From Ectobius pallidus (lineage: Eukaryota > Arthropoda > Insecta > Blattodea > Ectobiidae), in NCBI GenBank assembly GCA_964059195.1, contig CAXKWD010000005.1:154967265-155031264 (forward strand): a DNA stretch of 64,000 nucleotides, in the 5' to 3' direction. The position numbers were made by a program, and so were the translations under genes. This document shows, one piece after another, positions 1 through 64,000 of the stretch (positions are counted from its first letter, which is position 1; each line of letters starts with the position of its first letter). The notes below the pieces were generated by a model. The model did not search any database. It worked only from the letters and a program-made list of their open reading frames with translations, and had not been told where the DNA came from.

Positions 1-2766
1 TAGCCTTCTCGGAATTCTGGGTGCATTTTTCGAAATTTTCAAAGGGGTTAGCCTTCTCGGAATTCTGGGTGCATTTTTCGAAATTTTCAAAGGGGTTAGC
101 CTTCTCGGAATTCTGGGTGCATTTTTCGAAATTTTCATAGGGGTTAGCCTTCTCGGAATTCTGGGTGCATTTTTCGAAATTTTCAAAGGGGTTAGCCTTC
201 TCGGAATTCTGGGTGCATTTTTCGAAATTTTCAAAGGGGTTAGCCTTCTCGGAATTCTGGGTGCATTTTTCGAAATTTTCAAAAGGGTTAGCCTTCTCGG
301 AATTCTGGGTGCATTTTTCGAAATTTTCAAAGGGGTTAGCCTTCTCGGAATTCTGGGTGCATTTTTCGAAATTTTCAAAGGAGTTAGCCTTCTCGGAATT
401 CTGGGTGCATTTTTCGAATTTTTCAAAGGGGTTTGCCTTCTCGGAATTCTGGGTGCATTTTTCGAAATTTTCAAAGGGGTTAGCCTTCTCGGAATTCTGG
501 GTGCATTTTTCGAAATTTTCAAAGGGGTTAGCCTTCTCGGAATTCTGGGTGCATTTTTCGAAATTTTCAAAGGGGTTAGCCTTCTCGGAATTCTGGGTGC
601 ATTTTTCGAAATTTTCAAATGGGTTAGCCTTCTCGGAATTCTGGGTGCATTTTTCGAAATTTTCAAAGGGGTTAGCCTTCTCGGAATTCTGGGTGCATTT
701 TTCGAAATTTTCAAAGGGGTTAGCCTTCTCGGAATTCTGGGTGCATTTTTCGAAATTTTCAAAGGGGTTAGCCTTCTCGGAATTCTGGGTGCATTTTTCG
801 AAATTTTCAAAGGGGTTAGCCTTCTCGGAATTCTGGGTGCAATTTTAGAAATTTTCAAAGGGGTTAGCCTTCTCGGAATTCTGGGTGCATTTTTCGAAAT
901 TTTCAAAGGGGTTAGCCTTCTCGGAATTCTGGGTGCATTTTTCGAAATTTTCAAAGGGGTTAGCCTTCTCGGAATTCTGGGTGCATTTTTCGGAAATTTT
1001 CAAAGGGGTTAGCTTTCTCGGAATTCTGGGTGCATTTTCGAAATTTTCAAAGGGGTTAGCCTTCTCGGAATTCTGGGTGCATTTTTCGAAATTTTCAAAG
1101 GGTTAGCCTTCTCGGAATTCTGGGTGCATTTTTCGAAATTTTCAAAGGGGTTAGCCTTCTCGGAATTCTGGGTGCATTTTTCGAAATTTTCAAAGGGGTT
1201 AGCTTTCCCGGAATTCTGGGTGCATTTTTCGAAATTTTCAAAGGGGTTAGCCTTCTCCGAATTCTGGGTGCATTTTTCGAAATTTTCAAAGGGGTTAGCC
1301 TTCTCGGAATTATGGGTGCATTTTTCGAAATTTTCAAAGGGGTTAGCCTTCTCGGAATTCTGGGTGCATTTTTCGAAATTTTCAAAGGGGTTAGCCTTCT
1401 CTGAATTCTCGGTGCATTTTTCGAAATTTTCAAAGGGGTTAGCCTTCTCGGAATTCTGGGTGCATTTTTCGAAATTTTCAAAGGGGTTAGCCCTCTCGGA
1501 ATTCTGGGTGCATTTTTCGAAATTTCCAAGGGGTTAGCCCTCTCGGAATTCTTGGTGCATTTTTGAAGTTTTCAAAGGGGTTAGCCTTCTCGGAATTCTG
1601 GGTGCATTTTTCGAAATTTTCAAAGGGGTTAGCCTTCTCGGAATTCTGGGTGCATTTTTCGAAATTTTCAAAGGGGTTAGCCTTCTCGGAATTCTGGGTG
1701 CATTTTTCGAAATTTTCAAAGGGGTTAGCCTTCTCGGAATTCTGGGTGCATTTTCGAAATTTTCAAAGGGGTTAGCCTTCTCGGAATTCTGGGTGCATTT
1801 TTCGAAATTTTCAAAGGGGTTAGCCTTCTCGGAATTCTGGGTGCATTTTTCGAAATTTTCAAAGGGGTTAGCCTTCTCGGAATTCTGGGTGCATTTTTCG
1901 AAATTTTCAAAGGGGTTAGCCTTCTCGGAATTCTGGGTGCATTTTTCGAAATTTTCAAAGGGGTTAGCCTTCTCGGAATTCTGGGTGCATTTTTCGAAAT
2001 TTTCAAAGGGGTTAGCCTTCTCGGAATTCTGGGTGCATTTTTCGAAATTTTCAAAGGGGTTAGCCTTCTCGGAATTCTGGGTGCATTTTTCGAAATTTTC
2101 AAAGGGGTTTGCCTTCTCGGAATTCTGGGTGCATTTTTCGAAATTTTCAAAGGGGTTAGCCTTCTCGGAATTCTGGGTGCATTTTTCGAAATTTTCAAAG
2201 GGGTTAGCTTTCTCGGAATTCTGGGTGCATTTTCGAAATTTTCAAAGGGGTTAGCCTTCTCGGAATTCTGGGTGCATTTTTCGAAATTTTCAAAGGGGTT
2301 AGCCTTCTCGGAATTCTGGGTGCATTTTTCGAAATTTTCAAAGGGGTTAGCCTTCTCGGAATTCTGGGTGCATTTTTCGAAATTTTCAAAGGGGTTAGCT
2401 TTCCCGGAATTCTGGGTGCATTTTTCGAAATTTTCAAAGGGGTTAGCCTTCTCCGAATTCTGGGTGCATTTTTCGAAATTTTCAAAGGGGTTAGCCTTCT
2501 CGGAATTATGGGTGCATTTTTCGAAATTTTCAAAGGGGTTAGCCTTCTCGGAATTCTGGGTGCATTTTTCGAAATTTTCAAAGGGGTTAGCCTTCTCGGA
2601 ATTCTGGGTGCATTTTTCGAAATTTTCAAAGGGGTTAGCCTTCTCGGAATTCTGGGTGCATTTTTCGAAATTTTCAAAGGGGTTAGCCCTCTCGGAATTC
2701 TGGGTGCATTTTTCGAAATTTCCAAGGGGTTAGCCCTCTCGGAATTCTTGGTGCATTTTTGAAATT
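1..2766. repeat. Higher-order repeat of about 1.2 kb inside the left array
   Basis: Diagnostic variants recur in the same order about 1196 bp apart. These are the tract AATTTCCAAGGGG followed by CCCTCTCGG and CTTGGTGC (near 1521 and 2717), the CTCCGAATTC variant (near 1255 and 2451) and the GAATTATGGG variant (near 1308 and 2505). The unit is about 25 monomers, and two copies can be recognised. Confidence 0.75.
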
Positions 2767-4906
2767 TTCAAAGGGGTTAGCCTTCTCGGAATTCTGGGTG
2801 CATTTTTCGAAATTTTCAAAGGGGTTAGCCTTCTCGGAATTCTGGGTGCATTTTTCGAAATTTTCAAAGGGGTTAGCCTTCTCGGAATTCTGGGTGCATT
2901 TTTCGAAATTTTCAAAGGGGTTAGCCTTCTCGGAATTCTGGGTGCATTTTTCGAAATTTTCAAAGGGGTTAGCCTTCTCGGAATTCTGGGTGCATTTTTC
3001 GAAATTTTCAAAGGGGTTAGCCTTCTCGGAATTCTGGGTGCATTTTTCGAAATTTTCAAAGGGGTTAGCCTTCTCGGAATTCTGGGTGCATTTTTCGAAA
3101 TTTTCAAAGGGGTTAGCCTTCTCGGAATTCTGGGTGCATTTTTCGAAATTTTCAAAGGGGTTAGCCTTCTCGGAATTCTGGGTGCATTTTTCGAATTTTC
3201 AAAGGGGTTAGCCTTCTCGGAATTCTGGGTGCGTTTTTTCGAAATTTTCAAAGGGGTTAGCCTTCTCGGAATTCTGGGTGCATTTTTCGAAATTTTCAAA
3301 GGGGTTAGCCTTCTCGGAATTCTGGGTGCATTTTTCGAAATTTTCAAAGGGGTTAGCCTTCTCGGAATTCTGGGTGCATTTTTCGAAATTTTCAAAGGGG
3401 TTAGCCTTCTCGGAATTCTGGGTGCATTTTTCGAAATTTTCAAAGGGGTTAGCCTTCTCGGAAATCTGGGTGCATTTTTCGAAATTTTCAAAGGGGTTAG
3501 CCTTCTCGGAATTCTGGGTGCATTTTTCGAAATTTTCAAAGGGGTTAGCCTTCTCGGAATTCTGGGTGCATTTTTCGAAATTTTCAAAGGGGTTAGCCTT
3601 CTCGGAATTCTGGGTGCATTTTTCGAAATTTTCAAAGGGGTTAGCCTTCTCGGAATTCTGGGTGCATTTTTCGAAATTTTCAAAGGGGTTAGCCTTCTCG
3701 GAATTCTGGGTGCATTTTTCGAAATTTTCAAAGGGGTTAGCCTTCTCGGAATTCTGGGTGCATTTTTCGAAATTTTCAAAGGGGTTAGCCTTCTCGGAAT
3801 TCTGGGTGCATTTTTCGAAATTTTCAAAGGGTTAGCCTTCTCGGAATTCTGGGTGAATTTTTCGAAGTTTTCAAAGGGGTTACCCTTCTCGGAATTCTGG
3901 GTGCATTTTTCGAATTTTTCAAAGGAGTTAGCCTTCTCGGAATTCTGGGTGCATTTTTCGAATTTTTCAAAGGGGTTAGCCTTCTCGGAATTCTGAGTGC
4001 ATTTTTCGAATTTTTCAAAGGGGTTAGCCTTCTCGGAATTCTGGGTGCATTTTTCGAAATTTTCAAAGGGGTTAGCCTTCTCGGAATTCTGGGTGCATTT
4101 TTCGAAATTTTCAAAGGGGTTAGCCTTCTCGGAATTCTGGGTGCATTTTTCGAAATTTTCAAAGGGGTTAGCCTTCTCGGAATTCTGGGTGCATTTTTCG
4201 AAATTTTCAAAGGGGTTAGCCTTCTCGGAATTCTGAGTGCATTTTTCGAAACTTTCAAAGGGGTTAGACTTCTCGGAATTCTGGGTGCATTTTTCGAAAT
4301 TTTCAAAGGGGTTAGCCTTCTCGGAATTCTGGGTGCATTTTTCGAAATTTTCAAAGGGGTTAGCCTTCTCGGAATTCTGGGTGCATTTTTCGAAATTTTC
4401 AAAGGGGTTAGCCTCTCGGAATTCTGGGTGCATTTTTCGAAATTTTCAAAGGGGTTAGCTTCTCGGAATTCTGGGTGCATTTTTCGAAATTTTCAAAGGG
4501 GTTAGCCTTCTCGGAATTCTGGGTGCATTTTTCGAAATTTTCAAAGGGGTTAGCCTTCTCGGAATTCTGGGTGCATTTTTCGAAATTTTCAAAGGGGTTA
4601 GCCTTCTCGGAATTCTGGGTGCATTTTTCGAAATTTTCAAAGGGGTTAGCTTTCTCGGAATTCTGGGTGCATTTTCGAAATTTTCAAAGGGGTTAGCCTT
4701 CTCGGAATTCTGGGTGCATTTTTCGAAATTTTCAAAGGGGTTAGCCTTCTCGGAATTCTGGGTGCATTTTTCGAAATTTTCAAAGGGGTTAGCCTTCTCG
4801 GAATTCTGGGTGCATTTTTCGAAATTTTCAAAGGGGTTAGCCTTCTCGGAATTCTGGGTGCATTTTTCGAAATTTTCAAAGGGGTTAGCCTTCTCGGAAT
4901 TCTGGG
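1..4906. repeat. 48-bp satellite array, left block (about 102 monomers)
   Basis: This is a head-to-tail array of a 48-bp monomer. Each monomer contains GGGTTAGCCTTCTC, an EcoRI site (GAATTC), GGGTGCATTTTTC and TTCGAA. Most monomers are identical; variants are single substitutions or 1-bp indels. The array starts before the window and runs into an N gap, so neither edge is seen. Because 48 is divisible by three and the unit lacks stops in two frames per strand, long phantom ORFs arise (16-residue repeats HFSKFSKGLAFSEFWV, GAFFEIFKGVSLLGIL, KISKNAPRIPRRLTPL, ENFEKCTQNSEKANPF). There is no sign that any is a real gene. Confidence 0.98.
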
Positions 4907-5106
4907 NNNNNNNNNNNNNNNNNNNNNNNNNNNNNNNNNNNNNNNNNNNNNNNNNNNNNNNNNNNNNNNNNNNNNNNNNNNNNNNNNNNNNNNNNNNNNN
5001 NNNNNNNNNNNNNNNNNNNNNNNNNNNNNNNNNNNNNNNNNNNNNNNNNNNNNNNNNNNNNNNNNNNNNNNNNNNNNNNNNNNNNNNNNNNNNNNNNNNN
5101 NNNNNN
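4907..5106. other. Assembly gap (200 N)
   Basis: Exactly 200 N. Satellite lies on its left and unique-looking sequence on its right. The real end of the left array is not represented, and the round number suggests a placeholder gap of unknown length. Confidence 0.99.
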
Positions 5107-5391
5107 GAAGGGATAAAGGGCTTTGCTGAAAGGAGGATGTCAAGTGACATTTTTAAATGAATGTCAGTTAAATATCTAAGCAGGCTTGATGATATTCAAA
5201 ATATCTGCCAATTTCTTGAGGTGCATTTTTCAGCCGTTTAGGAGGTACCAAATGTGTCGCATCGACCAATGCAGGATCCTGAGTTAAAATCCACCTTTTA
5301 AAGCAGGCCACTGGCAGAGTTTTGTCTAATTTTGAAAGGCTAGCTCAAACCATTGACCTATAATGAAAATAAAAAAATCGCCACATATCGC
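5107..5391. other. Unannotated spacer between gap and first transposon
   Basis: AT-rich sequence with no coding frame, terminal repeat or tRNA-like motif that I can recognise. Confidence 0.5.
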
Positions 5392-12271: not shown

Positions 12272-12444
12272 GTATGGTGAAGACTTATCAACTGGGCAGA
12301 GATGGGAAATATGGATCCATGATAAAAGTAGCACCTGTAACGACTGAGAAAGAATCAAACGTAAACACTTGCCTCCGAGTTAATGGAACTAGTGGTTCCA
12401 CTGTGCAACCCCAGAGCATATTACCTGATCTGAATGGATTCCAG
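12272..12444 (+). CDS. 26-29-p: 26-29-p exon a (N-terminal extension)
   Basis: The acceptor is TTTTGTAG before 12272; the donor is GTAACA after 12444. The exon starts with the last two bases of a codon and ends on a codon boundary, giving 57 full codons from MVKTYQLGRDGKYGS to SILPDLNGFQ. It belongs to the N-terminal region peculiar to the 26/29 kDa proteinase family, upstream of the inhibitor propeptide. The ATG is probably internal, because the family has about 70 residues before this point, including a signal peptide; the acceptor just upstream supports that. Confidence 0.85.
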
Positions 12445-14181: not shown

Positions 14182-14286
14182 TACCTTGGTGAAGAACCTG
14201 TGAATGGATTGAGCTGTGAAAAGTGGCGTCTAGTAGACACTAAAGGAGACAAAGTCAATAAATACACAATATGGTTACGCTACAAG
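14182..14286 (+). CDS. 26-29-p: 26-29-p exon b (N-terminal extension)
   Basis: The acceptor is TTACTTTCCAG before 14182; the donor is GTATGTC after 14286. It is exactly 35 codons in phase 0, reading YLGEEPVNGLSCEK to KYTIWLRYK. It continues the family-specific N-terminal domain, with a Cys that may pair with one in exon a (my inference). A LINE 3' end lies about 35 bp past the donor. Confidence 0.85.
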
Positions 14287-44110: not shown

Positions 44111-44111
44111 C

Positions 44112-47100: not shown

Positions 47101-50100
47101 TTAGCCTTCTCGGAATTCTGGGTGCATTTTTCGAAATTTTCAAAGGGGTTAGCCTTCTCGGAATTCTGGGTGCATTTTTCGAAATTTTCAAAGGGGTTAG
47201 CCTTCTCGGAAATCTGGGTGCATTTTTCGAAATTTTCAAAGGGGTTAGCCTTCTCGCAATTCTGGGTGCATTTTTCGAAATTGTCAAAGGGGTTAGCCTT
47301 CTCGGAATTCTGGGTGCATTTTTCGAAATTTTCAAAGGGGTTAGCCTTCTCGGAATTCTGGGTGCATTTTTCGAAATTTTCAAAGGGGTTAGCCTTCTCG
47401 GAATTCTGGGTGCATTTTTCGAAATTTTCAAAGGGGTTAGCCTTCTCGGAAATCTGGGTGCATTTTTCGAAATTTTCAAAGGGGTTAGCCTTCTAGCAAT
47501 TCTGGCTGCATTTTTCGAAATTTTCAAAGGGGTTAGCCTTCTCGGAATTCTGGGTGCATTTTTCGAAATTTTCAAAGGGGTTAGCCTTCTCGGAATTCTG
47601 GGTGCATTTTTCGAAATTTTCAAAGGGGTTAGCCTTCTCGGAATTCTGGGTGCATTTTTCGAAATTTTCAAAGGGGTTAGCCTTCTCGGAATTCTGGGTG
47701 CATTTTTCGAAATTTTCAAAGGGGTTAGCCTTCTCGGAATTCTGGGTGCATTTTCGAAATTTTCAAAGGGGTTAGCCTTCTCGAAATTCTGGGTGCATTT
47801 TTCGAAATTTTCAAAGGGGTTAGCCTTCTCGGAATTCTGGGTGCATTTTTCGAAATTTTCAAAGGGGTTAGCCTTCTCGGAATTCTGGGTGCATTTTTCG
47901 AAATTTTCAAAGGGGTTAGCCTTCTCGGAATTCTGGGTGCATTTTTCGAAATTTTCAAAGGGGTTAGCCTTCTCGCAATTCTGGGTGCATTTTTCGAAAT
48001 TTTCAAAGGGGTTAGCCTTCTCGGAATTCTGGGTGCATTTTTCGAAATTTTCAAAGGGGTTAGCCTTCTCGGAATTCTGGGTGCATTTTTCGATATTTTC
48101 AAAGGGGTTAGCCTTCTCGGAATTCTGGGTGCATTTTTCGAAATTTTCAAAGGGGTTAGCCTTCTCGGAATTCTGGGTGCATTTTTCGAATTTTTCAAAG
48201 GGGTTAGCCTTCTCGGAATTCTGGGTGCATTTTTCGAATTTTTCAAAGGGGTTAGCCTTCTCGGAATTCTGGGTGCATTTTTCGAAATTTTCAAAGGGGT
48301 TAGCCTTCTCGGAATTCTGGGTGCATTTTTCGAAATTTTCAATGGGGTTAGCCTTCTCGGAATTCTGGGTGCATTTTTCGAAATTTTCAAAGGGGTTAGC
48401 CTTCTCGGAATTCTGGGTGCATTTTTCGAAATTTTCAAAGGGGTTAGCCTTCTCGGAATTCTGGGTGCATTTTTCGAAATTTTCAAAGGGGTTAGCCTTC
48501 TCGGAATTCTGGGTGCATTTTTCGAAATTTTCAAAGGGGTTAGCCTTCTGGGAATTCTGGGTGCATTTTTCGAAATTTTCAAAGGGGTTAGCCTTCTCGG
48601 AATTTTGGGTGCATTTTTCGAAATTTTCAAAGGGGTTAGCCTTCTCGGAATTCTAGGTGCATTTTTCGAAATTTTCAAAGGGGTTAGCCTTCTCGGAATG
48701 CTGGGTGCATTTTTCGAAATTTTCAAAGGGGTTAGCGTTCTCGGAATTCTGGGTGCATTTTTCGAAATTTTCAAAGGGGTTAGCCTTCTCGGAATTCTGG
48801 GTGCATTTTTCGAAATTTTCAAAGGGGTTAGCCTTCTCGGAATTCTGGGTGCATTTTTCGAAATTTTCAAAGGGGTTAGCCTTCTCGGAATTCTGGGTGC
48901 ATTTTTCGAAATTTTCAAAGGGGTTAGCCTTCTCGGAATTCTGGGTGCATTTTTCGAAATTTTCAAAGGGGTTAGCCTTCTCGGAATTCTGGGTGCATTT
49001 TTCGAAATTTTCAAAGGGGTTAGCCTTCTCGGAATTCTGGGTGCATTTTTCGAAATTTTCAAAGGGGTTAGCCTTCTCGGAATTCTGGGTGCATTTTTCG
49101 AAATTTTCAAAGGGGTTAGCCTTCTCGGAATTCTGGGTGCATTTTTCGAAATTTTCAAAGGGGTTAGCCTTCTCGGAATTCTGGGTGCATTTTTCGAAAT
49201 TTTCAAAGGGGTTAGCCTTCTCGGAATTCTGGGTGCATTTTTCGAAATTTTCAAAGGGGTTAGCCTTCTCGGAATTCTGGGTGCATTTTTCGAAATTTTC
49301 AAAGGGGTTAACCTTCTCGGAATTCTGGGTGCATTTTTCGAAATTTTCAAAGGGGTTAGCCTTCTCGGAATTCTGGGTGCATTTTTCGAAATTTTCAAAG
49401 GGGTTAGCCTTCTCGGAATTCTGGGTGCATTTTTCGAAATTTTCAAAGGGGTTAGCCTTCTCGGAATTCTGGGTGCATTTTTCGAAATTTTCAAAGGGGT
49501 TAGCCTTCTCGGAATTCTGGGTGCATTTTTCGAAATTTTCAAAGGGGTTAGCCTTCTCGGAATTCTGGGTGCATTTTTCGAAATTTTCAAAGGGGTTAGC
49601 CTCGGAATTCTGGGTGCATTTTTCGAAATTTTCAAAGGGGTTAGCCTTCTCGGAATTCTGGGTGCATTTTTCGAAATTTTCAAAGGGGTTAGCCTTCTCG
49701 GAATTCTGGGTGCATTTTTCGAAATTTTCAAAGGGGTTAGCCTTCTCGGAATTCTGGGTGCATTTTTCGAAATTTTCAAAGGGGTTAGCCTTCTCGGAAA
49801 TCTGGGTGCATTTTTCGAAATTTTCAAAGGGGTTAGCCTTCTCGCAATCCTGGCTGCATTTTTCGAAATTTTCAAAGGGGTTAGCCTTCTCGGAATCCTG
49901 GGTGCATTTTTCGATATTTTCAAAGGGGTTAGCCTTCTCGGAATTCTGGGTGCATTTTTCGAAATTTTCAAAGGGGTTAGCCTTCTCGGAATTCTGGGTG
50001 CATTTTTCGAAATTTTCAAAGGGGTTAGCCTTCTCGGAATTCAGGGTGCATTTTTCGAAATTTTCAAAGGGGTTAGCCTTCTCGGAATTCTGGGTGCATT

Positions 50101-53100
50101 TTTCGAAATTTTCAAAGGGGTTAGCCTTCTCGGAATTCTGGGTGCATTTTTCGAATTTTTCAAAGGGGTTAGCCTTCTCGGAATTCTGGGTGCATTTTTC
50201 GAAATTTTCAAAGGGGTTAGCCTTCTCGGAATTCTGGGTGCATTTTTCGAAATTTTCAAAGGGGTTAGCCTTCTCGGAATTCTGGGTGCATTTTTCGAAA
50301 TTTTCAAAGGGGTTAGCCTTCTCGGAATTCTGGGTGCATTTTTCGAAATTTTCAAAGGGGTTAGCCTTCTCGGAATGCTGGGTGCATTTTTCGAAATTTT
50401 CAAAGGGGTTAGCCTTCTCGGAATTCTGGGTGCATTTTTCGAAATTTTCAAAGGGGTTAGCCTTCTCGGAATTCTGGGTGCATTTTTCGAAATTTTCAAA
50501 GGGGTTAGCCTTCTCGGAATTCTGGGTGCATTTTTCGAAATTTTCAAAGGGGTTAGCCTTCTCGGAATTCTGGGTGCATTTTTCGAAATTTTCAAAGGGG
50601 TTAGCCTTCTCGGAATTCTGGGTGCATTTTTCGAAATTTTCAAAGGAGTTAGCCTTCTCGGAATTCTGGGTGCATTTTTCGAAATTTTCAAAGGGGTTAG
50701 CCTTCTCGGAATTCTGGGTGCATTTTTCGAAATTTTCAAAGGGGTTAGCCTTCTCGGAATTCTGGGTGCATTTTTCGAAATTTTCAAAGGGGTTAGCCTT
50801 CTCGGAATTCTGGGTGCATTTTTCGAAATTTTCAAAGGGGTTAGCCTTCTCGGAATTCTGGGTGCATTTTTCGAAATTTTCAAAGGGGTTAGCCTTCTCG
50901 GAATTCTGGGTGCATTTTTCGAAATTTTCAAAGGGGTTAGCCTTCTCGGAATTCTGGGTGCATTTTTCGAAATTTTCAAAGGGGTTAGCCTTCTCGGAAT
51001 TCTGGGTGCATTTTTCGAAATTTTCAAAGGGGTTAGCCTTCTCGGAATTCTGGGTGCATTTTTCGAAATTTTCAAAGGGGTTAGCCTTCTCGGAATTCTG
51101 GGTGCATTTTTCGAAATTTTCAAAGGGGTTAGCCTTCTCGGAATTCTGGGTGCATTTTTCGAAATTTTCAAAGGGGTTAGCCTTCTCGGAATTGTGGGTG
51201 CATTTTTCGAAATTTTCAAAGGGGTTAGCCTTCTCGGAAATCTGGGTGCATTTTTCGAAATTTTCAAAGGGGTTAGCCTTCTCGGAATTCTGGGTGCATT
51301 TTTCGAAATTTTCAAAGGGGTTAGCCTTCTCGGAATTCTGGGTGCATTTTTCGAAATTTTCAAAGGGGTTAGCCTTCTCGGAATTCTGGGTGCATTTTTC
51401 GAAATTTTCGAAGGGGTTAGCCTTCTCGGAATTCTGGGTGCATTTTTCGATATTTTCAAAGGGGTTAGCCTTCTCGGAATTCTGGGTGCATTTTTCGAAA
51501 TTTTCAAAGGGGTTAGCCTTCTCGGAATTCTGGGTGCATTTTTCGAATTTTTCAAAGGGGTTAGCCTTCTCGGAATTCTGGGTGCATTTTTCGAATTTTT
51601 CAAAGGGGTTAGCCTTCTCGGAATTCTGGGTGCATTTTTCGAAATTTTCAAAGGGGTTAGCCTTCTCGGAATTCTGGGTGCATTTTTCGAAATTTTCAAA
51701 GGGGTTAGCCTTCTCGGAATTCTGGGTGCATTTTTCGAAATTTTCAAAGGGGTTAGCCTTCTCGGAATTCTGGGTGCATTTTTCGAAATTTTCAAAGGGG
51801 TTAGCCTTCTCGGAATTCTGGGTGCATTTTTCTAAATTTTCAAAGGGGTTAGCCTTCTCGGAATTCTGGGTGCATTTTTCGAAATTTTCAAAGGGGTTAG
51901 CCTTCTCGGAATTCTGGGTGCATTTTTCGAAATTTTCAAAGGGGTTAGCCTTCTCGGAATTCTGGGTGCATTTTTCGAAATTTTCAAAGGGGTTAGCCTT
52001 CTCGGAATTCTGGGTGCATTTTTCGAAATTTTCAAAGGGGTTAGCCTTCTCGGAATTCTGGGTGCATTTTTCGAAATTTTCAAAGGGGTTAGCCTTCTCG
52101 GAATGCTGGGTGCATTTTTCGAAATTTTCAAAGGGGTTAGCCTTCTGGGAATTCTTAGTGCATTTTTCGAAATTTTCAAAGGGGTTAGCCTTCTCGGAAT
52201 TCTGGGTGCATTTTTCGAAATTTTCAAAGGGGTTAGCCTTCTCGGAATTCTGGGTGCATTTTTCGAAATTTTCAAAGGGGTTAGCCTTCTCGGAATTCTG
52301 GGTGCATTTTTCGAAATTTTCAAAGGGGTTAGCCTTCTCGGAATTCTGAGTGCATTTTTCGAAATTTTCAAAGGGGTTAGACTTCTCGGAATTCTGGGTG
52401 CATTTTTCGAAATTTTCAAAGGGGTTAGCCTTTTCGGAATTCTGGGTGCATTTTTCGAAATTTTCAAAGGGGTTAGCCATCTCGGAATTCTGGGTGCATT
52501 TTTCGAAATTTTCAAAGGGGTTAGCCTTCTCGGAATTCTGGGTGCATTTTTCGAAATTTTCAAAGGGGTTAGCCTTCTCGGAATTCTGGGTGCATTTTTC
52601 GAAATTTTCAAAGGGGTTAGCCTTCTCGGAATTCTGAGTGCATTTTTCGAAATTTTCAAAGGGGTTAGCCTTCTCGGAATTCTGGGTGCATTTTTCGAAA
52701 TTTTCAAAGGGGTTAGCCTTCTCGGAATTCTGGGTGCATTTTTCGAAATTTTCAAAGGGGTTAGCCTTCTCGGAATTCTGGGTGCATTTTTCGAAATTTT
52801 CAAAGGGGTTAGCCTTCCCGGAATTCTGGGTGCATTTTTCGAGATTTTCAAAGGGGTTAGCCTTCTCGGAATTCTGGGTGCATTTTTCGAAATTTTCAAA
52901 GGGGTTAGCCTTCTCGGAATTCTGGGTGCATTTTTCGAAATTTTCAAAGGGGTTAGCCTTCTCGGAATTCTGGGTGCATTTTTCGAAATTTTCAAAGGGG
53001 TTAGCCTTCTCGGAATTGTGGGTGCATTTTTCGAAATTTTCAAAGGGGTTAGCCTTCTCGGAAATCTGGGTGCATTTTTCGAAATTTTCAAAGGGGTTAG

Positions 53101-56100
53101 CCTTCTCGGAATTCTGGGTGCATTTTTCGAAATTTTCAAAGGGGTTAGCCTTCTCGGAATTCTGGGTGCATTTTTCGAAATTTTCAAAGGGGTTAGCCTT
53201 CTCGGAATTCTGGGTGCATTTTTCGAATTTTTCAAAGGGGTTAGCCTTCTCGGAATTCTGGGTGCATTTTTCGAAATTTTCAAAGGGGTTAGCCTTCTCG
53301 GAATTCTGGGTGCATTTTTCGAAATTTTCAAAGGGGTTAGCCTTCTCGGAATTCTGGGTGCATTTTTCGAAATTTTCAAAGGGGTTAGCCTTCTCGGAAT
53401 TCTGGGTGCATTTTTCGAAATTTTCAAAGGGGTTAGCCTTCTCGGAATTCTGGGTGCATTTTTCGAAATTTTCAAAGGGGTTAGCCTTCTCGGAATTCTG
53501 GGTGCATTTTTCGAAATTTTCAAAGGGGTTAGCCTTCTCGGAATTGTGGGTGCATTTTCGAAATTTTCAAAGGGGTTAGCCTTCTCGGAATTGTGGGTGC
53601 ATTTTTCGAAATTTTCAAAGGGGTTAGCCTTCTCGGAATTCTGGGTGCATTTTTCGAAATTTTCAAAGGGGTTAGCCTTCTCGGAATTCTGGGTGCATTT
53701 TTCGAAATTTTCAAAGGGGTTAGCCTTCTCGGAATTCTGGGTGCATTTTTCGAAATTTTCAAAGGGGTTAGCCTTCTCGGAATTCTGGGTGCATTTTTCG
53801 AAATTTTCAAAGGGGTTAGCCTTCTCGGAATTCTGGGTGCATTTTTCGAAATTTTCAAAGGGGTTAGCCTTCTCGGAATTCTGGGTGCATTTTTCGAAAT
53901 TTTCAAAGGGGTTAGCCTTCTCGGAATTCTGGGTGCATTTTTCGAAATTTTCAAAGGGGTTAGCCTTCTCGGAATTCTGGGTGCATTTTTCGAAATTTTC
54001 AAAGGGGTTAGCCTTCTCGGAATTCTGGGTGCATTTTTCGAAATTTTCAAAGGGGTTAGCCTTCTCGGAATTCTGGGTGCATTTTTCGAAATTTTCAAAG
54101 GGGTTAGCCTTCTCGCAATCCTGGCTGCATTTTTCGAAATTTTCAAAGGGGTTAGCCTTCTCGGAATCCTGGGTGCATTTTTCGAAATTTTCAAAGGGGT
54201 TAGCCTTCTCGGAATTCTGGGTGCATTTTTCGAAATTTTCAAAGGGGTTAGCCTTCTCGGAATTCTGGGTGCATTTTTCGAAATTTTCAAAGGGGTTAGC
54301 CTTCTCGGAATTCTGGGTGCATTTTTCGAAATTTTCAAAGGGGTTAGCCTTCTCGGAATTCTGGGTGCATTTTTCGAAATTTTCAAAGGGGTTAGCCTTC
54401 TCGGAATTCTGGGTGCATTTTTCGAAATTTTCAAAGGGGTTAGCCTTCTCGGAATTCTGGGTGCATTTTTCGAAATTTTCAAAGGGGTTAGCCTTCTCGG
54501 AATTCTGGGTGCATTTTTCGAAATTTTCAAAGGGGTTAGCCTTCTCGCAATCCTGGCTGCATTTTTCGAAATTTTCAAAGGGGTTAGCCTTCTCGGAATC
54601 CTGGGTGCATTTTTCGAAATTTTCAAAGGGGTTAGCCTTCTCGGAATTCTGGGTGCATTTTTCGAAATTTTCAAAGGGGTTAGCCTTCTCGGAATTCTGG
54701 GTGCATTTTTCGAAATTTTCAAAGGGGTTAGCCTTCTCGGAATTCTGGGTGCATTTTTCGAAATTTTCAAAGGGGTTAGCCTTCTCGGAATTCTGGGTGC
54801 ATTTTTCGAAATTTTCAAAGGGGTTAGCCTTCTCGGAATTCTGGGTGAAATTTTCAAAGGGGTTAGCCTTCTCGGAATTCTGGGTGCATTTTTCGAAATT
54901 TTCAAAGGGGTTAGCCTTCTCGGAATTCTGGGTGCATTTTTCGAAATTTTCAAAGGGGTTAGCCTTCTCGGAATTCTGGGTGCATTTTTCGAAATTTTCA
55001 AAGGGGTTAGCCTTCTCGGAATTCTGGGTGCATTTTTCGAAATTTTCAAAGGGGTTAGCCTTCTCGGAATTCTGGGTGCATTTTTCGAAATTTTCAAAGG
55101 GGTTAGCCTTCTCGGAATTCTGGGTGCATTTTTCGAAATTTTCAAAGGGGTTAGCCTTCTCGGAATTCTGGGTGCATTTTTCGAAATTTTCAAAGGGGTT
55201 AGCCTTCTCGGAATTCTGGGTGCATTTTTCGAAATTTTCAAAGGGGTTAGCCTTCTCGGAATTCGGGGTGCATTTTTCGAAATTTTCAAAGGGGTTAGCC
55301 TCGGAATTCTGGGTGCATTTTTCGAAATTTTCAAAGGGGTTAGCCTTCTCGGAATTCTGGGTGCATTTTTCGAAATTTTCAAAGGGGTTAGCCTTCTCGG
55401 AATTCTGGGTGCATTTTTCGAAATTTTCAAAGGGGTTAGCCTTCTCGGAATTCTGGGTGCATTTTTCGAAATTTTCAAAGGGGTTAGCCTTTTCGGAATT
55501 CTGGGTGCATTTTTCGAAATTTTCAAAGGGGTTAGCCTTCTCGGAATTCTGGGTGCATTTTTCGAAATTTTCAAATGGGTTAGCCTTCTCGGAATTCTGG
55601 GTGCATTTTTCGAAATTTTCAAAGGGGTTAGCCTTCTCGGAATTCTGGGTGCATTTTTCGAAATTTTCAAAGGGGTTAGCCTTCTCGGAATTCTGGGTGC
55701 ATTTTTCGAAATTTTCAAAGGGGTTAGCCTTCTCGGAATTCTGGGTGCATTTTTCGAAATTTTCAAAGGGGTTAGCCTTCTCGGAATTCTGGGTGCATTT
55801 TTCGAAATTTTCAAAGGGGTTAGCCTTCTCGGAATTGTGGGTGCATTTTTCGAAATTTTCAAAGGGTTTAGCCTTCTCGGAATTCTGGGTGCATTTTTCG
55901 AAATTTTCAAAGGGGTTAGCCTTCTCGGAATTCTGGGTGCATTTTTCGAAATTTTCAAAGGGGTTAGCCTTCTCGGAATTCTGGGTGCATTTTTCGAAAT
56001 TTTCAAAGGGGTTAGCCTTCTCGGAATTGTGGGTGCATTTTTCGAAATTTTCAAAGGGGTTAGCCTTCTCGGAAATCTGGGTGCATTTTTCGAAATTTTC

Positions 56101-59100
56101 AAAGGGGTTAGCCTTCTCGGAATTCTGGGTGCATTTTTCGATATTTTCAAAGGGGTTAGCCTTCTCGGAATTCTGGGTGCATTTTTCGAAATTTTCAAAG
56201 GGGTTAGCCTTCTCGGAATTCTGGGTGCATTTTTCGAATTTTTCAAAGGGGTTAGCCTTCTCGGAATTCTGGGTGCATTTTTCGAATTTTTCAAAGGGGT
56301 TAGCCTTCTCGGAATTCTGGGTGCATTTTTCGAAATTTTCAAAGGGGTTAGCCTTCTCGGAATTCTGGGTGCATTTTTCGAAATTTTCAAAGGGGTTAGC
56401 CTTCTCGGAATTCTGGGTGCATTTTTCGAAATTTTCAAAGGGGTTAGCCTTCTCGGAATTCTGGGTGCATTTTTCGAAATTTTCAAAGGGGTTAGCCTTC
56501 TCGGAATTCTGGGTGCATTTTTCTAAATTTTCAAAGGGGTTAGCCTTCTCGGAATTCTGGGTGCATTTTTCGAAATTTTCAAAGGGGTTAGCCTTCTCGG
56601 AATTCTGGGTGCATTTTTCGAAATTTTCAAAGGGGTTAGCCTTCTCGGAATTCTGGGTGCATTTTTCGAAATTTTCAAAGGGGTTAGCCTTCTCGGAATT
56701 CTGGGTGCATTTTTCGAAATTTTCAAAGGGGTTAGCCTTCTCGGAATTCTGGGTGCATTTTTCGAAATTTTCAAAGGGGTTAGCCTTCTCGGAATGCTGG
56801 GTGCATTTTTCGAAATTTTCAAAGGGGTTAGCCTTCTGGGAATTCTTAGTGCATTTTTCGAAATTTTCAAAGGGGTTAGCCTTCTCGGAATTCTGGGTGC
56901 ATTTTTCGAAATTTTCAAAGGGGTTAGCCTTCTCGGAATTCTGGGTGCATTTTTCGAAATTTTCAAAGGGGTTAGCCTTCTCGGAATTCTGGGTGCATTT
57001 TTCGAAATTTTCAAAGGGGTTAGCCTTCTCGGAATTCTGAGTGCATTTTTCGAAATTTTCAAAGGGGTTAGACTTCTCGGAATTCTGGGTGCATTTTTCG
57101 AAATTTTCAAAGGGGTTAGCCTTTTCGGAATTCTGGGTGCATTTTTCGAAATTTTCAAAGGGGTTAGCCATCTCGGAATTCTGGGTGCATTTTTCGAAAT
57201 TTTCAAAGGGGTTAGCCTTCTCGGAATTCTGGGTGCATTTTTCGAAATTTTCAAAGGGGTTAGCCTTCTCGGAATTCTGGGTGCATTTTTCGAAATTTTC
57301 AAAGGGGTTAGCCTTCTCGGAATTCTGAGTGCATTTTTCGAAATTTTCAAAGGGGTTAGCCTTCTCGGAATTCTGGGTGCATTTTTCGAAATTTTCAAAG
57401 GGGTTAGCCTTCTCGGAATTCTGGGTGCATTTTTCGAAATTTTCAAAGGGGTTAGCCTTCTCGGAATTCTGGGTGCATTTTTCGAAATTTTCAAAGGGGT
57501 TAGCCTTCCCGGAATTCTGGGTGCATTTTTCGAGATTTTCAAAGGGGTTAGCCTTCTCGGAATTCTGGGTGCATTTTTCGAAATTTTCAAAGGGGTTAGC
57601 CTTCTCGGAATTCTGGGTGCATTTTTCGAAATTTTCAAAGGGGTTAGCCTTCTCGGAATTCTGGGTGCATTTTTCGAAATTTTCAAAGGGGTTAGCCTTC
57701 TCGGAATTGTGGGTGCATTTTTCGAAATTTTCAAAGGGGTTAGCCTTCTCGGAAATCTGGGTGCATTTTTCGAAATTTTCAAAGGGGTTAGCCTTCTCGG
57801 AATTCTGGGTGCATTTTTCGAAATTTTCAAAGGGGTTAGCCTTCTCGGAATTCTGGGTGCATTTTTCGAAATTTTCAAAGGGGTTAGCCTTCTCGGAATT
57901 CTGGGTGCATTTTTCGAATTTTTCAAAGGGGTTAGCCTTCTCGGAATTCTGGGTGCATTTTTCGAAATTTTCAAAGGGGTTAGCCTTCTCGGAATTCTGG
58001 GTGCATTTTTCGAAATTTTCAAAGGGGTTAGCCTTCTCGGAATTCTGGGTGCATTTTTCGAAATTTTCAAAGGGGTTAGCCTTCTCGGAATTCTGGGTGC
58101 ATTTTTCGAAATTTTCAAAGGGGTTAGCCTTCTCGGAATTCTGGGTGCATTTTTCGAAATTTTCAAAGGGGTTAGCCTTCTCGGAATTCTGGGTGCATTT
58201 TTCGAAATTTTCAAAGGGGTTAGCTTTCTCGGAATTGTGGGTGCATTTTTCGAAATTTTCAAAGGGGTTAGCCTTCTCGGAATTGTGGGTGCATTTTTCG
58301 AAATTTTCAAAGGGGTTAGCCTTCTCGGAATTCTGGGTGCATTTTTCGAAATTTTCAAAGGGGTTAGCCTTCTCGGAATTCTGGGTGCATTTTTCGAAAT
58401 TTTCAAAGGGGTTAGCCTTCTCGGAATTCTGGGTGCATTTTTCGAAATTTTCAAAGGGGTTAGCCTTCTCGGAATTCTGGGTGCATTTTTCGAAATTTTC
58501 AAAGGGGTTAGCCTTCTCGGAATTCTGGGTGCATTTTTCGAAATTTTCAAAGGGGTTAGCCTTCTCGGAATTCTGGGTGCATTTTTCGAAATTTTCAAAG
58601 GGGTTAGCCTTCTCGGAATTCTGGGTGCATTTTTCGAAATTTTCAAAGGGGTTAGCCTTCTCGGAATTCTGGGTGCATTTTTCGAAATTTTCAAAGGGGT
58701 TAGCCTTCTCGGAATTCTGGGTGCATTTTTCGAAATTTTCAAAGGGGTTAGCCTTCTCGGAATTCTGGGTGCATTTTTCGAAATTTTCAAAGGGGTTAGC
58801 CTTCTCGCAATCCTGGCTGCATTTTTCGAAATTTTCAAAGGGGTTAGCCTTCTCGGAATCCTGGGTGCATTTTTCGAAATTTTCAAAGGGGTTAGCCTTC
58901 TCGGAATTCTGGGTGCATTTTTCGAAATTTTCAAAGGGGTTAGCCTTCTCGGAATTCTGGGTGCATTTTTCGAAATTTTCAAAGGGGTTAGCCTTCTCGG
59001 AATTCTGGGTGCATTTTTCGAAATTTTCAAAGGGGTTAGCCTTCTCGGAATTCTGGGTGCATTTTTCGAAATTTTCAAAGGGGTTAGCCTTCTCGGAATT

Positions 59101-62100
59101 CTGGGTGAAATTTTCAAAGGGGTTAGCCTTCTCGGAATTCTGGGTGCATTTTTCGAAATTTTCAAAGGGGTTAGCCTTCTCGGAATTCTGGGTGCATTTT
59201 TCGAAATTTTCAAAGGGGTTAGCCTTCTCGGAATTCTGGGTGCATTTTTCGAAATTTTCAAAGGGGTTAGCCTTCTCGGAATTCTGGGTGCATTTTTCGA
59301 AATTTTCAAAGGGGTTAGCCTTCTCGGAATTCTGGGTGCATTTTTCGAAATTTTCAAAGGGGTTAGCCTTCTCGGAATTCTGGGTGCATTTTTCGAAATT
59401 TTCAAAGGGGTTAGCCTTCTCGGAATTCTGGGTGCATTTTTCGAAATTTTCAAAGGGGTTAGCCTTCTCGGAATTCTGGGTGCATTTTTCGAAATTTTCA
59501 AAGGGGTTAGCCTTCTCGGAATTCGGGGTGCATTTTTCGAAATTTTCAAAGGGGTTAGCCTCGGAATTCTGGGTGCATTTTTCGAAATTTTCAAAGGGGT
59601 TAGCCTTCTCGGAATTCTGGGTGCATTTTTCGAAATTTTCAAAGGGGTTAGCCTTCTCGGAATTCTGGGTGCATTTTTCGAAATTTTCAAAGGGGTTAGC
59701 CTTCTCGGAATTCTGGGTGCATTTTTCGAAATTTTCAAAGGGGTTAGCCTTTTCGGAATTCTGGGTGCATTTTTCGAAATTTTCAAAGGGGTTAGCCTTC
59801 TCGGAATTCTGGGTGCATTTTTCGAAATTTTCAAATGGGTTAGCCTTCTCGGAATTCTGGGTGCATTTTTCGAAATTTTCAAAGGGGTTAGCCTTCTCGG
59901 AATTCTGGGTGCATTTTTCGAAATTTTCAAAGGGGTTAGCCTTCTCGGAATTCTGGGTGCATTTTTCGAAATTTTCAAAGGGGTTAGCCTTCTCGGAATT
60001 CTGGGTGCATTTTTCGAAATTTTCAAAGGGGTTAGCCTTCTCGGAATTGTGGGTGCATTTTTCGAAATTTTCAAAGGGTTTAGCCTTCTCGGAATTCTGG
60101 GTGCATTTTTCGAAATTTTCAAAGGGGTTAGCCTTCTCGGAATTCTGGGTGCATTTTTCGAAATTTTCAAAGGGGTTAGCCTTCTCGGAATTCTGGGTGC
60201 ATTTTTCGAAATTTTCAAAGGGGTTAGCCTTCTCGGAATTGTGGGTGCATTTTTCGAAATTTTCAAAGGGGTTAGCCTTCTCGGAAATCTGGGTGCATTT
60301 TTCGAAATTTTCAAAGGGGTTAGCCTTCTCGGAAATCTGGGTGCATTTTTCGAAATTTTCAAAGGGGTTAGCCTTCTCGCAATCCTGGCTGCATTTTTCG
60401 AAATTTTCAAAGGGGTTAGCCTTCTCGGAATCCTGGGTGCATTTTTCGAAATTTTAAAGGGGTTAGCCTTCTCGGAATTCTGGGTGCATTTTTCGATATT
60501 TTCAAAGGGGTTAGCCTTCTCGGAATTCTGGGTGCATTTTTCGAAATTTTCAAAGGGGTTAGCCTTCTCGGAATTCTGGGTGCATTTTTCGAAATTTTCA
60601 AAGGGGTTAGCCTTCTCGGAATTCTGGGTGCATTTTTCGAAATTTTCAAAGGGGTTAGCCTTCTCGGAATTCTGGGTGCATTTTTCGAAATTTTCAAAGG
60701 GGTTAGCCTTCTCGGAAATCTGGGTGCATTTTTCGAAATTTTCAAAGGGGTTAGCCTTCTCGGAAATCTGGGTGCATTTTTCGAAATTTTCAAAGGGGTT
60801 AGCCTTCTCGCAATCCTGGCTGCATTTTTCGAAATTTTCAGAGGGGTTAGCCTTCTCGGAATCCTGGGTGCATTTTTCGAAATTTTCAAAGGGGTTAGCC
60901 TTCTCGGAATCCTGGGTGCATTTTTCGAAATTTTCAAAGGGGTTAGCCTTCTCGGAATTCTGGGTGCATTTTTCGAAATTTTCAAAGGGGTTAGCCTTCT
61001 CGGAATTCTGGGTGCATTTTTCGATATTTTCAAAGGGGTTAGCCTTCTCGGAATTCTGGGTGCATTTTTGGAAATTTTCAAAGGGGTTAGCCTTCTCGGA
61101 ATTCTGGGTGCATTTTTCGAAATTTTCTAAGGGGTTAGCCTTCTCGGAATTCTGGGTGCATTTTTCGAAATTTTCAAAGGGGTTAGCCTTCTCGGAATTC
61201 TGGGTGCATTTTTCGACATTTTCAAAGGGATTAGCCTTCTCGGAATTCTGGGTGCATTTTTCGAAATTTTCAAAGGGGTTAGCCTTCTCGGAATTCTGGG
61301 TGCATTTTTCGAAATTTTCAAAGGGGTTAGCCTTCTCGGAATTCTGGGTGCATTTTTCGAAATTTTCAAAGGGGTTAGCCTTCTCGGAATTCTGGGTGCA
61401 TTTTTCTAAATTTTCAAAGGAGTTAGCCTTCTCGGAATTCTGGGTGCATTTTTCGAAATTTTCAAAGGGGTTAGCCTTCTCGGAATTCTGGGTGCATTTT
61501 TCGAAATTTTCAAAGGGGTTAGCCTTCTCGGAATTCTGGGTGCATTTTTCGAAATTTTCAAAGGGGTTAGCCTTCTCGGAATTCTGGGTGCATTTTTCGA
61601 AATTTTCAAAGGGGTTAGCCTTCTCGGAATTCTGGGTGCATTTTTCGAAATTTTCAAAGGGGTTAGCCTTCTCGGAATGCTGGGTGCATTTTTCGAAATT
61701 TTCAAAGGGGTTAGCCTTCTGGGAATTCTTAGTGCATTTTTCGAAATTTTCAAAGGGGTTAGCCTTCTCGGAATTCTGGGTGCATTTTTCGAAATTTTCA
61801 AAGGGGTTAGCCTTCTCGGAATTCTGGGTGCATTTTTCGAAATTTTCAAAGGGGTTAGCCTTCTCGGAATTCTGGGTGCATTTTTCGAAATTTTCAAAGG
61901 GGTTAGCCTTCTCGGAATTCTGAGTGCATTTTTCGAAATTTTCAAAGGGGTTAGACTTCTCGGAATTCTGGGTGCATTTTTCGAAATTTTCAAAGGGGTT
62001 AGCCTTTTCGGAATTCTGGGTGCATTTTTCGAAATTTTCAAAGGGGTTAGCCATCTCGGAATTCTGGGTGCATTTTTCGAAATTTTCAAAGGGGTTAGCC

Positions 62101-64000
62101 TTCTCGGAATTCTGGGTGCATTTTTCGAAATTTTCAAAGGGGTTAGCCTTCTCGGAATTCTGGGTGCATTTTTCGAAATTTTCAAAGGGGTTAGCCTTCT
62201 CGGAATTCTGAGTGCATTTTTCGAAATTTTCAAAGGGGTTAGCCTTCTCGGAATTCTGGGTGCATTTTTCGAAATTTTCAAAGGGGTTAGCCTTCTCGGA
62301 ATTCTGGGTGCATTTTTCGAAATTTTCAAAGGGGTTAGCCTTCTCGGAATTCTGGGTGCATTTTTCGAAATTTTCAAAGGGGTTAGCCTTCCCGGAATTC
62401 TGGGTGCATTTTTCGAGATTTTCAAAGGGGTTAGCCTTCTCGGAATTCTGGGTGCATTTTTCGAAATTTTCAAAGGGGTTAGCCTTCTCGGAATTCTGGG
62501 TGCATTTTTCGAAATTTTCAAAGGGGTTAGCCTTCTCGGAATTCTGGGTGCATTTTTCGAAATTTTCAAAGGGGTTAGCCTTCTCGGAATTGTGGGTGCA
62601 TTTTTCGAAATTTTCAAAGGGGTTAGCCTTCTCGGAAATCTGGGTGCATTTTTCGAAATTTTCAAAGGGGTTAGCCTTCTCGGAATTCTGGGTGCATTTT
62701 TCGAAATTTTCAAAGGGGTTAGCCTTCTCGGAATTCTGGGTGCATTTTTCGAAATTTTCAAAGGGGTTAGCCTTCTCGGAATTCTGGGTGCATTTTTCGA
62801 ATTTTTCAAAGGGGTTAGCCTTCTCGGAATTCTGGGTGCATTTTTCGAAATTTTCAAAGGGGTTAGCCTTCTCGGAATTCTGGGTGCATTTTTCGAAATT
62901 TTCAAAGGGGTTAGCCTTCTCGGAATTCTGGGTGCATTTTTCGAAATTTTCAAAGGGGTTAGCCTTCTCGGAATTCTGGGTGCATTTTTCGAAATTTTCA
63001 AAGGGGTTAGCCTTCTCGGAATTCTGGGTGCATTTTTCGAAATTTTCAAAGGGGTTAGCCTTCTCGGAATTCTGGGTGCATTTTTCGAAATTTTCAAAGG
63101 GGTTAGCCTTCTCGGAATTGTGGGTGCATTTTTCGAAATTTTCAAAGGGGTTAGCCTTCTCGGAATTCTGGGTGCATTTTTCGAAATTTTCAAAGGGGTT
63201 AGCCTTCTCGGAATTCTGGGTGCATTTTTCGAAATTTTCAAAGGGGTTAGCCTTCTCGGAATTCTGGGTGCATTTTTCGAAATTTTCAAAGGGGTTAGCC
63301 TTCTCGGAATTCTGGGTGCATTTTTCGAAATTTTCAAAGGGGTTAGCCTTCTCGGAATTCTGGGTGCATTTTTCGAAATTTTCAAAGGGGTTAGCCTTCT
63401 CGGAATTCTGGGTGCATTTTTCGAAATTTTCAAAGGGGTTAGCCTTCTCGGAATTCTGGGTGCATTTTTCGAAATTTTCAAAGGGGTTAGCCTTCTCGGA
63501 ATTCTGGGTGCATTTTTCGAAATTTTCAAAGGGGTTAGCCTTCTCGGAATTCTGGGTGCATTTTTCGAAATTTTCAAAGGGGTTAGCCTTCTCGCAATCC
63601 TGGCTGCATTTTTCGAAATTTTCAAAGGGGTTAGCCTTCTCGGAATCCTGGGTGCATTTTTCGAAATTTTCAAAGGGGTTAGCCTTCTCGGAATTCTGGG
63701 TGCATTTTTCGAAATTTTCAAAGGGGTTAGCCTTCTCGGAATTCTGGGTGCATTTTTCGAAATTTTCAAAGGGGTTAGCCTTCTCGGAATTCTGGGTGCA
63801 TTTTTCGAAATTTTCAAAGGGGTTAGCCTTCTCGGAATTCTGGGTGCATTTTTCGAAATTTTCAAAGGGGTTAGCCTTCTCGGAATTCTGGGTGAAATTT
63901 TCAAAGGGGTTAGCCTTCTCGGAATTCTGGGTGCATTTTTCGAAATTTTCAAAGGGGTTAGCCTTCTCGGAATTCTGGGTGCATTTTTCGAAATTTTCAA
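44112..64000. repeat. 48-bp satellite array, right block (about 414 monomers)
   Basis: Same monomer, orientation and phase of GTTAGCC...AAAGGG as the left block, continuing past the window. Monomer variants include CGCAATCCTGGCTGC, GGAAATCTGGG, AATTGTGGG, a 6-bp-shortened GCCTCGGAATTC and a shortened GGGTGAAATTTTC. Open frames of up to 1843 codons on both strands are repeat artefacts. If the protease gene continues, this array lies in its intron. Confidence 0.98.
52101..64000. repeat. Higher-order repeats of about 4.3-4.9 kb inside the right array
   Basis: The pair GGAATGCTGGG then CTTCTGGGAATTCTTAGTGC recurs at 52101, 56792 and 61677. GTTAGACTTCTCGG after TTCTGAGTGC recurs next to each. The short monomer GGGTGAAATTTTC recurs near 54847, 59107 and 63893. 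Copies differ by blocks of 9-13 monomers; for example a 432-bp unit bounded by CTCGCAATCCTGGCTGC is doubled at 54115/54546 and at 60379/60811. Confidence 0.9.

What the first reader, a model, noticed from the sequence alone, without database searches (positions are those of the whole stretch)
1..64000. A conserved protease gene is sandwiched between two blocks of one satellite
Seven intact exons of 26-29-p (12272-40914) lie between arrays of the same 48-bp satellite in the same orientation. The family's 5' exons and its catalytic His/Asn exons are not seen between the arrays. Either the gene has giant satellite-filled introns (the last one at least 23 kb, with at least 19.9 kb of satellite), as known for some Drosophila Y-linked fertility genes, or the array has broken it, or the assembly joined the wrong pieces.
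Basis: partly seen in the sequence, partly recalled or inferred. Interest (0 to 1): 0.85.

Follow-up and report, generated by a model that had tools for sequence, protein, structure and literature searches.

The report
Satellite-filled intron, gene block duplicated
A cockroach protease gene looks trapped between two satellite blocks, but the genome sequence around it indicates that the gene is whole, that one large intron is filled with satellite DNA, and that the second block is most likely the same intron seen again because the assembly placed both parental copies of the locus end to end.

Summary
Seven intact 26-29-p exons (a-g, 12272-40914) lie between same-orientation 48-bp arrays, but a 200-N gap (4907-5106) separates the left array from the gene. 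The window is C5:154967265-155031264 of a 2.12-Gb genome, probably Ectobius pallidus haplotype 2. There exons a-g occur twice in tandem; the 5' exon once, upstream of the first copy (U); the two 3' exons with catalytic His and Asn once, downstream of the window copy (W) and its array. The left block is therefore the end of U's g-h intron array. U and W differ at 2 of 1082 exonic but 274 of 26001 aligned noncoding bases (1.05%), within the heterozygosity range implied by published k-mer completeness (0.66-1.25%). Best reading: a false haplotypic exon gain at the gap. The gene is not broken. Its g-h intron is 61,762 bp in W and about 93% satellite: 33 kb of 48-bp repeat, 6.8 kb of 11-bp repeat, 17.8 kb of inverted 48-bp repeat, without N. 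A true in-gene tandem duplication is not excluded; haplotype 1 or read depth would decide.

The parts
1..4906 (+). 48-bp satellite: the last 4.9 kb of the g-h intron array of the upstream copy U (array C5:154923440-154972170, 48.7 kb, cut by the gap)
4907..5106 (.). 200-N scaffold gap, the only run of 5 or more N in C5:154870001-155081264
5107..5180 (.). first 74 bp of the next sequence piece; no counterpart in U, and a 103-base query starting with it has one match in the genome
5181..44113 (+). copy W of the duplicated block, collinear with U (C5:154886268-154923439)
12272..12444 (+). 26-29-p exon a
14182..14286 (+). 26-29-p exon b
19819..19975 (+). 26-29-p exon c
29039..29231 (+). 26-29-p exon d (start of I29 propeptide)
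29712..29932 (+). 26-29-p exon e (end of I29, start of mature protease)
37860..37960 (+). 26-29-p exon f (catalytic Cys, CGSCWSF)
40783..40914 (+). 26-29-p exon g
31331..32088 (+). dispersed repeat element, copy 1 (intron e-f); matched by BLAST to 32068, to about 32088 by eye
34116..36228 (+). composite array in intron e-f: 11-bp repeat (AAGTTACTTTC) with two short arrays of a 47-bp relative of the 48-bp satellite
42025..44113 (+). same element, copy 2 (98.5-98.9% identical to copy 1), with a 1.3-kb insertion; the array starts where the two copies stop matching
44114..64000 (+). 48-bp satellite filling intron g-h; continues to about C5:155044463, then 6.8 kb of 11-bp repeat, then about 17.8 kb of inverted 48-bp array, then exon h at C5:155069941

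Best explanation
The window holds the middle exons of one complete, probably working 26-29-p (C1A cathepsin) gene of a cockroach. The intron between exons g and h is filled with satellite: 48-bp array, 11-bp array, inverted 48-bp array. Shown: exons a-g exist twice on C5; between exon g of the first copy and the second copy lie about 52 kb, nearly all satellite, and a 200-N gap; the 5' exon and the 3' exons exist once each, outside the pair; the g-h intron of copy W is contiguous. Inferred: U and W are the two parental haplotypes of one locus. The assembler lost haplotype U inside its satellite and began haplotype W in intron 1; Hi-C scaffolding placed the two pieces head to tail. The satellite block left of the gene is then the allelic g-h intron seen a second time. 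The real gene would have one a-g set, a first intron of about 5.8 kb and a g-h intron of about 62 kb (W) or at least 51.9 kb (U), spliced out of a normal mRNA.
For: Own-genome search finds exons a-g twice each and the 5' exon, h and i once each. The only N run in 211 kb lies between the copies. Noncoding divergence 1.05% (274/26001) lies within the heterozygosity implied by the published k-mer completeness (0.66-1.25%, k 40-21). Divergence is a mosaic: 2.4-6.9% over window 5-18 kb, 0.7-1.4% over 18-28 kb, 0.3-0.4% over 28-44 kb, as recombining haplotypes give. Both copies are constrained: 2 differences in 1082 exonic bp against 15.5 expected from local noncoding rates, P 2.6e-5; exons a+b 1 against 12.1, P 7e-5. 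Splicing g to the second a gives a stop after two codons, so both sets cannot be read through in one mRNA. False exon gain with a gap between copies is a documented assembly error (PMC9516828, passages). In the probable source assembly 57 haplotypic duplications were corrected in curation (PMC11754957). The 10-exon joined frame is open, 539 aa, with full-length Peptidase_C1 and I29.
Against: Copy W carries 74 bp at its left edge that were not found in U or elsewhere in the genome, so homology stops just short of the contig edge. Past the array edge the U and W arrays share no ordered variant words and differ in length, more difference than the 0.3% flank divergence suggests, although 21 single monomer variants are shared. 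The mosaic divergence could also come from gene conversion between true tandem copies, and constraint on both copies would also be seen if both were used. The probable source was assembled with Hi-C phasing and curated for duplicates, which should have removed such cases. No reads or haplotype-1 sequence could be examined. The species identity rests on matching totals (2,124.62 against 2,124.67 Mb; 410 contigs against 414 scaffolds), not on a sequence match.
Confidence: 0.83

Rival explanations
1. True internal tandem duplication: about 88 kb of the gene (intron 1 part, exons a-g, satellite) is duplicated on one chromosome, giving two alternative seven-exon cassettes between shared first and last exons. 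Only one cassette can be used per mRNA.
For: Same scaffold, same strand, in order; both cassettes intact and constrained; a 74-bp unmatched stretch at the junction could be a breakpoint remnant; satellites favour unequal exchange (general knowledge).
Against: The breakpoint would have to coincide with the only scaffold gap in 211 kb; divergence equals expected heterozygosity and is a mosaic; g-to-a splicing is out of frame; a redundant cassette should have relaxed constraint, which is not seen.
Confidence: 0.13
2. The array has broken the gene, so that the window copy is a stranded pseudogene fragment and the working gene is elsewhere.
For: In the window alone the gene lacks its ends.
Against: The missing exons lie on the same scaffold in order and phase; the other 18 of 35 matches of the search are at 57% identity or less and are taken to be other cathepsins or chance (only the C7 one was read); exons show purifying selection.
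Confidence: 0.02
3. The g-h satellite, including its inverted half, is a misjoin of unrelated satellite contigs, so the giant intron is not real either (not exclusive of the readings above).
For: Satellite arrays are error-prone; the same 48/11-bp junction also occurs at three places on C3.
Against: No N run from window 5107 to C5:155081264; U independently shows at least 48.7 kb of the same array at the same edge with nearly the same first variants; the two inverted halves share ordered variants but are not the exact mirror a read artefact would give.
Confidence: 0.05

Closest known systems
False exon gain by heterotype (haplotypic) duplication, as defined in PMC9516828 (passages read)
   Same: Part of one gene's exons duplicated on the same scaffold with a gap between copies, copies differing by about the heterozygosity
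   Different: Half read depth and haplotype-specific k-mers, the other defining signs, could not be tested; here a satellite intron is the likely cause of the break
Satellite-filled giant introns of Drosophila Y fertility genes kl-3, kl-5, ks-1 (PMC9031259 and PMC6508621, passages)
   Same: Protein-coding gene with an intron made mostly of tandem satellite
   Different: 62 kb, not megabases; 48-bp and 11-bp units with an inverted half, not simple 5-7-bp repeats; a protease gene on a 187-Mb scaffold, linkage and expression unknown
TCAST1 satellite elements in introns of Tribolium genes (PMC4537270, passages)
   Same: Abundant satellite family also present inside introns of an insect's genes
   Different: TCAST1 insertions are single repeats or short arrays; here about 1,065 monomers in one intron (691 + 374)

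Membership tests
26-29-p / C1A papain family | Catalytic Cys, His, Asn in a full Peptidase_C1 domain | tested here: met
   Peptidase_C1 238.3 bits, profile 1-219 of 220; Cys in exon f (CGSCWSF), His and Asn in exon i; which residues are catalytic is recalled, from no call
26-29-p / C1A papain family | I29 propeptide and long N-terminal region shared with insect 26-29-p | tested here: met
   I29 52.0 bits; 412 of 539 aligned residues identical to Periplaneta P0008, 383 of 466 to Blattella P0081
26-29-p / C1A papain family | Signal peptide exon | tested here: inconclusive
   Ab initio candidate only, C5:154877019-154877079, MKDIRLRLLYLVLLPFILEC with GTAAGT donor in matching phase, the better of 2 candidates in about 14 kb scanned
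False haplotypic duplication | Gap between the two copies on one scaffold | tested here: met
   200 N at 4907-5106, only N run in 211 kb
False haplotypic duplication | Copies differ by about the individual's heterozygosity | tested here: met
   1.05% noncoding against 0.66-1.25% implied; conditional on the species identification
False haplotypic duplication | Half read depth and one-copy k-mers over both copies | not testable with these tools
   no reads held
False haplotypic duplication | Homology runs to the contig edge | tested here: inconclusive
   stops 74 bp short; those 74 bp were found nowhere else
Gene with satellite-filled giant intron | Exons on both sides of the array on one gapless sequence, in phase, same strand | tested here: met
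   exon g C5:155008047-155008178, exon h C5:155069941-155070130, no N run between
Gene with satellite-filled giant intron | Array is transcribed and spliced out | not testable with these tools
   no RNA data held
Drosophila Y-loop genes | Megabase-sized satellite introns | tested here: not met
   intron is 62 kb
Drosophila Y-loop genes | Y linkage and spermatocyte expression | not tested
   no linkage or expression data were looked at

The most novel reading that the evidence does not exclude
Because the g-h intron carries about 33 kb of the satellite in one orientation and about 17.8 kb of it inverted, every 26-29-p pre-mRNA could fold into a satellite double strand many kilobases long. The gene would then act as a hairpin source of satellite siRNAs for a family with over 137,000 exact copies of two 29-mers in the genome, tying satellite control to expression of an immune protease.
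Probability: 0.07. Interest if true: 0.75.

Novelty: new member of a known kind. Interest (0 to 1): 0.36.

Why it matters
It shows how a satellite-filled intron can make an assembly report a duplicated set of exons, so that a gene appears gained, broken or sandwiched. It also offers, if U and W are alleles, both alleles of one intronic satellite side by side: flanks 0.3% different, array interiors with no shared monomer order, a direct view of how fast a satellite turns over inside a working gene. The inverted arms make a clear, testable prediction of intronic double-stranded RNA.

Tried and rejected
A broken gene was rejected once searches found the missing exons in order and phase. A second complete gene elsewhere was sought and not found. 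A palindromic-read artefact for the inverted half was considered; the arms are not exact mirrors, so it is unlikely. A mobile origin of the whole array was considered: the 48/11-bp junction recurs on C3, but no element ends were looked for beyond the window. Exact matches to a 36-base satellite string were absent from viral contigs and genome contigs, collections that by their description hold no insects. A stretch at 36249-36500 that looks like exon f in places was judged chance by eye and not tested. Monomer splitting by fixed steps failed (lost register near 55 kb); its numbers were dropped and replaced. The small alignment returned nothing and was redone. A search for the element/array junction string did not complete. 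The divergence count left out one collinear 235-bp row at 90.2% identity (window 8472-8706), the composite array at 34.0-36.3 kb, gap columns and copy-specific insertions; with that row the figure would be about 1.1%. The heterozygosity estimate ignores structural differences and the k used by the authors is not known to me, so I give a range. Array boundaries in the length sums were set by eye.
Full report
OBSERVATION. Two arrays of one 48-bp unit in the same orientation (1-4906 and 44114-64000) flank seven exons of 26-29-p (12272-40914). All 14 splice boundaries of these exons follow GT-AG, the phases fit, and the joined frame of 360 codons has no stop.

WHERE IT LIES. The window is G000:C5:154967265-155031264 in a genome of 2,124,618,226 bases in 410 contigs. 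The best named protein relatives are cockroach and termite 26-29-p proteins (best 120 of 1026 listed); in end-to-end alignment Blattella, whose model lacks a part, has 383 of 466 aligned residues identical and Periplaneta 412 of 539. The published Ectobius pallidus haplotype 2 has 2,124.67 Mb in 414 scaffolds (PMC11754957, part 1 of 4 of the text and passages read). The near match of totals makes this the likely source; I did not confirm it by sequence.

THE MISSING EXONS. A search of the whole genome with the full-length Periplaneta protein gave 35 matches. Of these, 14 are exons a-g, each twice, in order and on the same strand of C5: copy U at 154890252-154920243 and copy W, the window's. 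The 5' exon appears once, at 154884320-154884484, upstream of U. The two 3' exons appear once, h at 155069941-155070130 and i at 155074050-155074234, downstream of W. The other 18 matches, at 57% identity or less, are taken to be other cathepsins or chance; only the one on C7 was read. Joined through W the ten exons give 539 codons and a stop, with full-length Peptidase_C1 (238.3 bits) and I29 (52.0 bits) domains. A signal-peptide exon was only guessed, at 154877019-154877079.

THE DUPLICATION. Fetched sequence from 154870001 to 155081264 contains one N run, the 200 N. U and W are collinear from window 5181 to the array start. Exons differ at 2 of 1082 bases, one silent (codon 67 of the joined frame) and one changing Ser to Gly or the reverse (codon 268). 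Aligned noncoding blocks differ at 274 of 26,001 bases, 1.05%. Left out of that count are one collinear 235-bp row at 90.2% identity (window 8472-8706), the composite array at 34.0-36.3 kb, gap columns and copy-specific insertions. Divergence is 2.4-6.9% in window 5-18 kb, 0.7-1.4% in 18-28 kb and 0.3-0.4% in 28-44 kb. Insertions of about 0.9 to 3.2 kb are specific to one copy. From the local noncoding rates 15.5 exonic differences would be expected and 2 are seen (Poisson P 2.6e-5); in exons a and b 12.1 against 1 (P 7e-5). Both copies have therefore been under selection since they parted. A transcript splicing g to the second a would meet a stop after two codons.

READING. Two alleles fit these facts best. 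The published per-haplotype and combined k-mer completeness (80.46%, 80.66%, 99.26%) implies a heterozygosity of 0.66-1.25% for k of 40 to 21, which includes the 1.05% seen. PMC9516828 (passages) names gaps between copies on the same scaffold as a mark of false duplication and defines false exon gain within one gene. In the probable source assembly 57 haplotypic duplications were corrected by curation. The satellite explains why the U piece stops: it ends inside the array. Against this: the first 74 bp of W (5107-5180) match nothing in U, and a 103-base query starting with them has one match in the genome (that search skips very common words); the assembly was Hi-C phased and curated; and gene conversion between true tandem copies could also give a mosaic. 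I hold 0.83 for false duplication and 0.13 for a true internal tandem duplication.

THE INTRON. Whatever the duplication is, the intron between g and h in copy W is 61,762 bp without an N run. It holds about 33.1 kb of the 48-bp satellite in plus orientation (691 monomers), 6.8 kb of an 11-bp repeat in four blocks of alternating orientation, and about 17.8 kb of the 48-bp satellite inverted (374 monomers). The 48-bp arrays are 82% of the intron; with the 11-bp repeat, 93% (my sum). The 48/11-bp boundary is the same on both sides for 61 bases into the 11-bp repeat and 5 into the 48-bp repeat, so the structure looks like an inverted duplication; the arms are not exact mirrors. In U the same array runs 48.7 kb before the gap. 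U and W start with nearly the same order of monomer variants, W having one extra monomer and a few changed ones. Words of four or six monomers shared by the U and W plus arrays lie only at that edge, and no word of eight is shared, whereas the two inverted halves of W share seven. Single variants are shared more widely: 21 non-consensus monomer types, covering 167 of 387 such monomers in U and 84 of 246 in W plus. If U and W are alleles, array interiors are rearranged far faster than their flanks, which are 99.84% identical over the 3.2 kb before the array.

THE SATELLITE FAMILY. The window's variant of a 29-base probe (T at unit position 22) has 3,542 plus 4,211 exact copies in the genome, of which 1,485 lie in this gene region (U 715, W plus 503, W minus 267). 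The C variant has 63,905 plus 65,828. So the gene carries a locally homogenised minority variant of a large dispersed family. Five stretches sampled on C1 (L001, L003, L006, L044, L045) have C-type consensus units, and L044 flips orientation without an 11-bp spacer. The 48/11-bp junction string occurs at five places, three on C3 and the two here. Two of the three C3 loci alternate 48-bp and 11-bp blocks; the third has one 48-bp block between an 11-bp array and a 16-bp repeat. The short decayed array in intron e-f of this gene also alternates the two. The two satellites thus travel or arise together; how is not shown.

KNOWN KINDS. Satellite-filled introns are known from Drosophila Y fertility genes (PMC9031259, PMC6508621, passages) and short satellite elements in introns from Tribolium (PMC4537270, passages). 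In two listings of the open-access library (12 and 10 papers listed of 125 and 35 found) I saw no title on a satellite-filled intron in a cockroach; this is not a full search. 26-29-p is described as a circulating cysteine cathepsin that processes Persephone upon infection in Drosophila (PMC10270351, passages).

VERDICT. The sandwich is most likely an assembly effect at a scaffold gap; the satellite-filled intron is real at the level of contiguous assembly. Transcription and splicing across it are inferred, not shown.

Noticed in passing
window 34116-36228: Old composite array in intron e-f: 11-bp repeat (AAGTTACTTTC) interleaved with two short arrays of a 47-bp relative of the 48-bp satellite, 87-90% alike
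   Followed up: partly
C3:28346312, C3:28353212, C3:34369896 (L046-L048): The same 48-bp/11-bp satellite boundary as in the 26-29-p intron recurs here; L046 and L047 alternate 48-bp and 11-bp blocks, L048 passes into a 16-bp repeat
   Followed up: partly
C1:148865001-148875000 (L044): 48-bp array of the C22 variant flips orientation at about 148869682 with no spacer, and back near the end of the stretch
   Followed up: no
window 5571-6411: GIY-YIG-like reading frame (weak Pfam match, 16.5 bits, below cut-off; Penelope-like by recall) within a 254-bp inverted repeat, 94% complementary, partly absent from copy U
   Followed up: no
window 42761-43396, minus strand: 211-aa open frame resembling the C-terminal end of a non-LTR reverse transcriptase (by eye; no Pfam match), inside the insertion in element copy 2
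   Followed up: no
C7:97003546-97007472 (L009): Uninterrupted 337-aa cathepsin L-like open frame, possibly an intronless copy
   Followed up: no
U and W+ arrays, C5:154923440-154972170 and 155011378-155044463: Array interiors share no ordered variant words although the 3.2 kb before them are 99.84% identical
   Followed up: yes
window 27610-27881: Near-perfect 134-bp palindrome (96% complementary, 4 bp between the arms), perhaps a fold-back element
   Followed up: no
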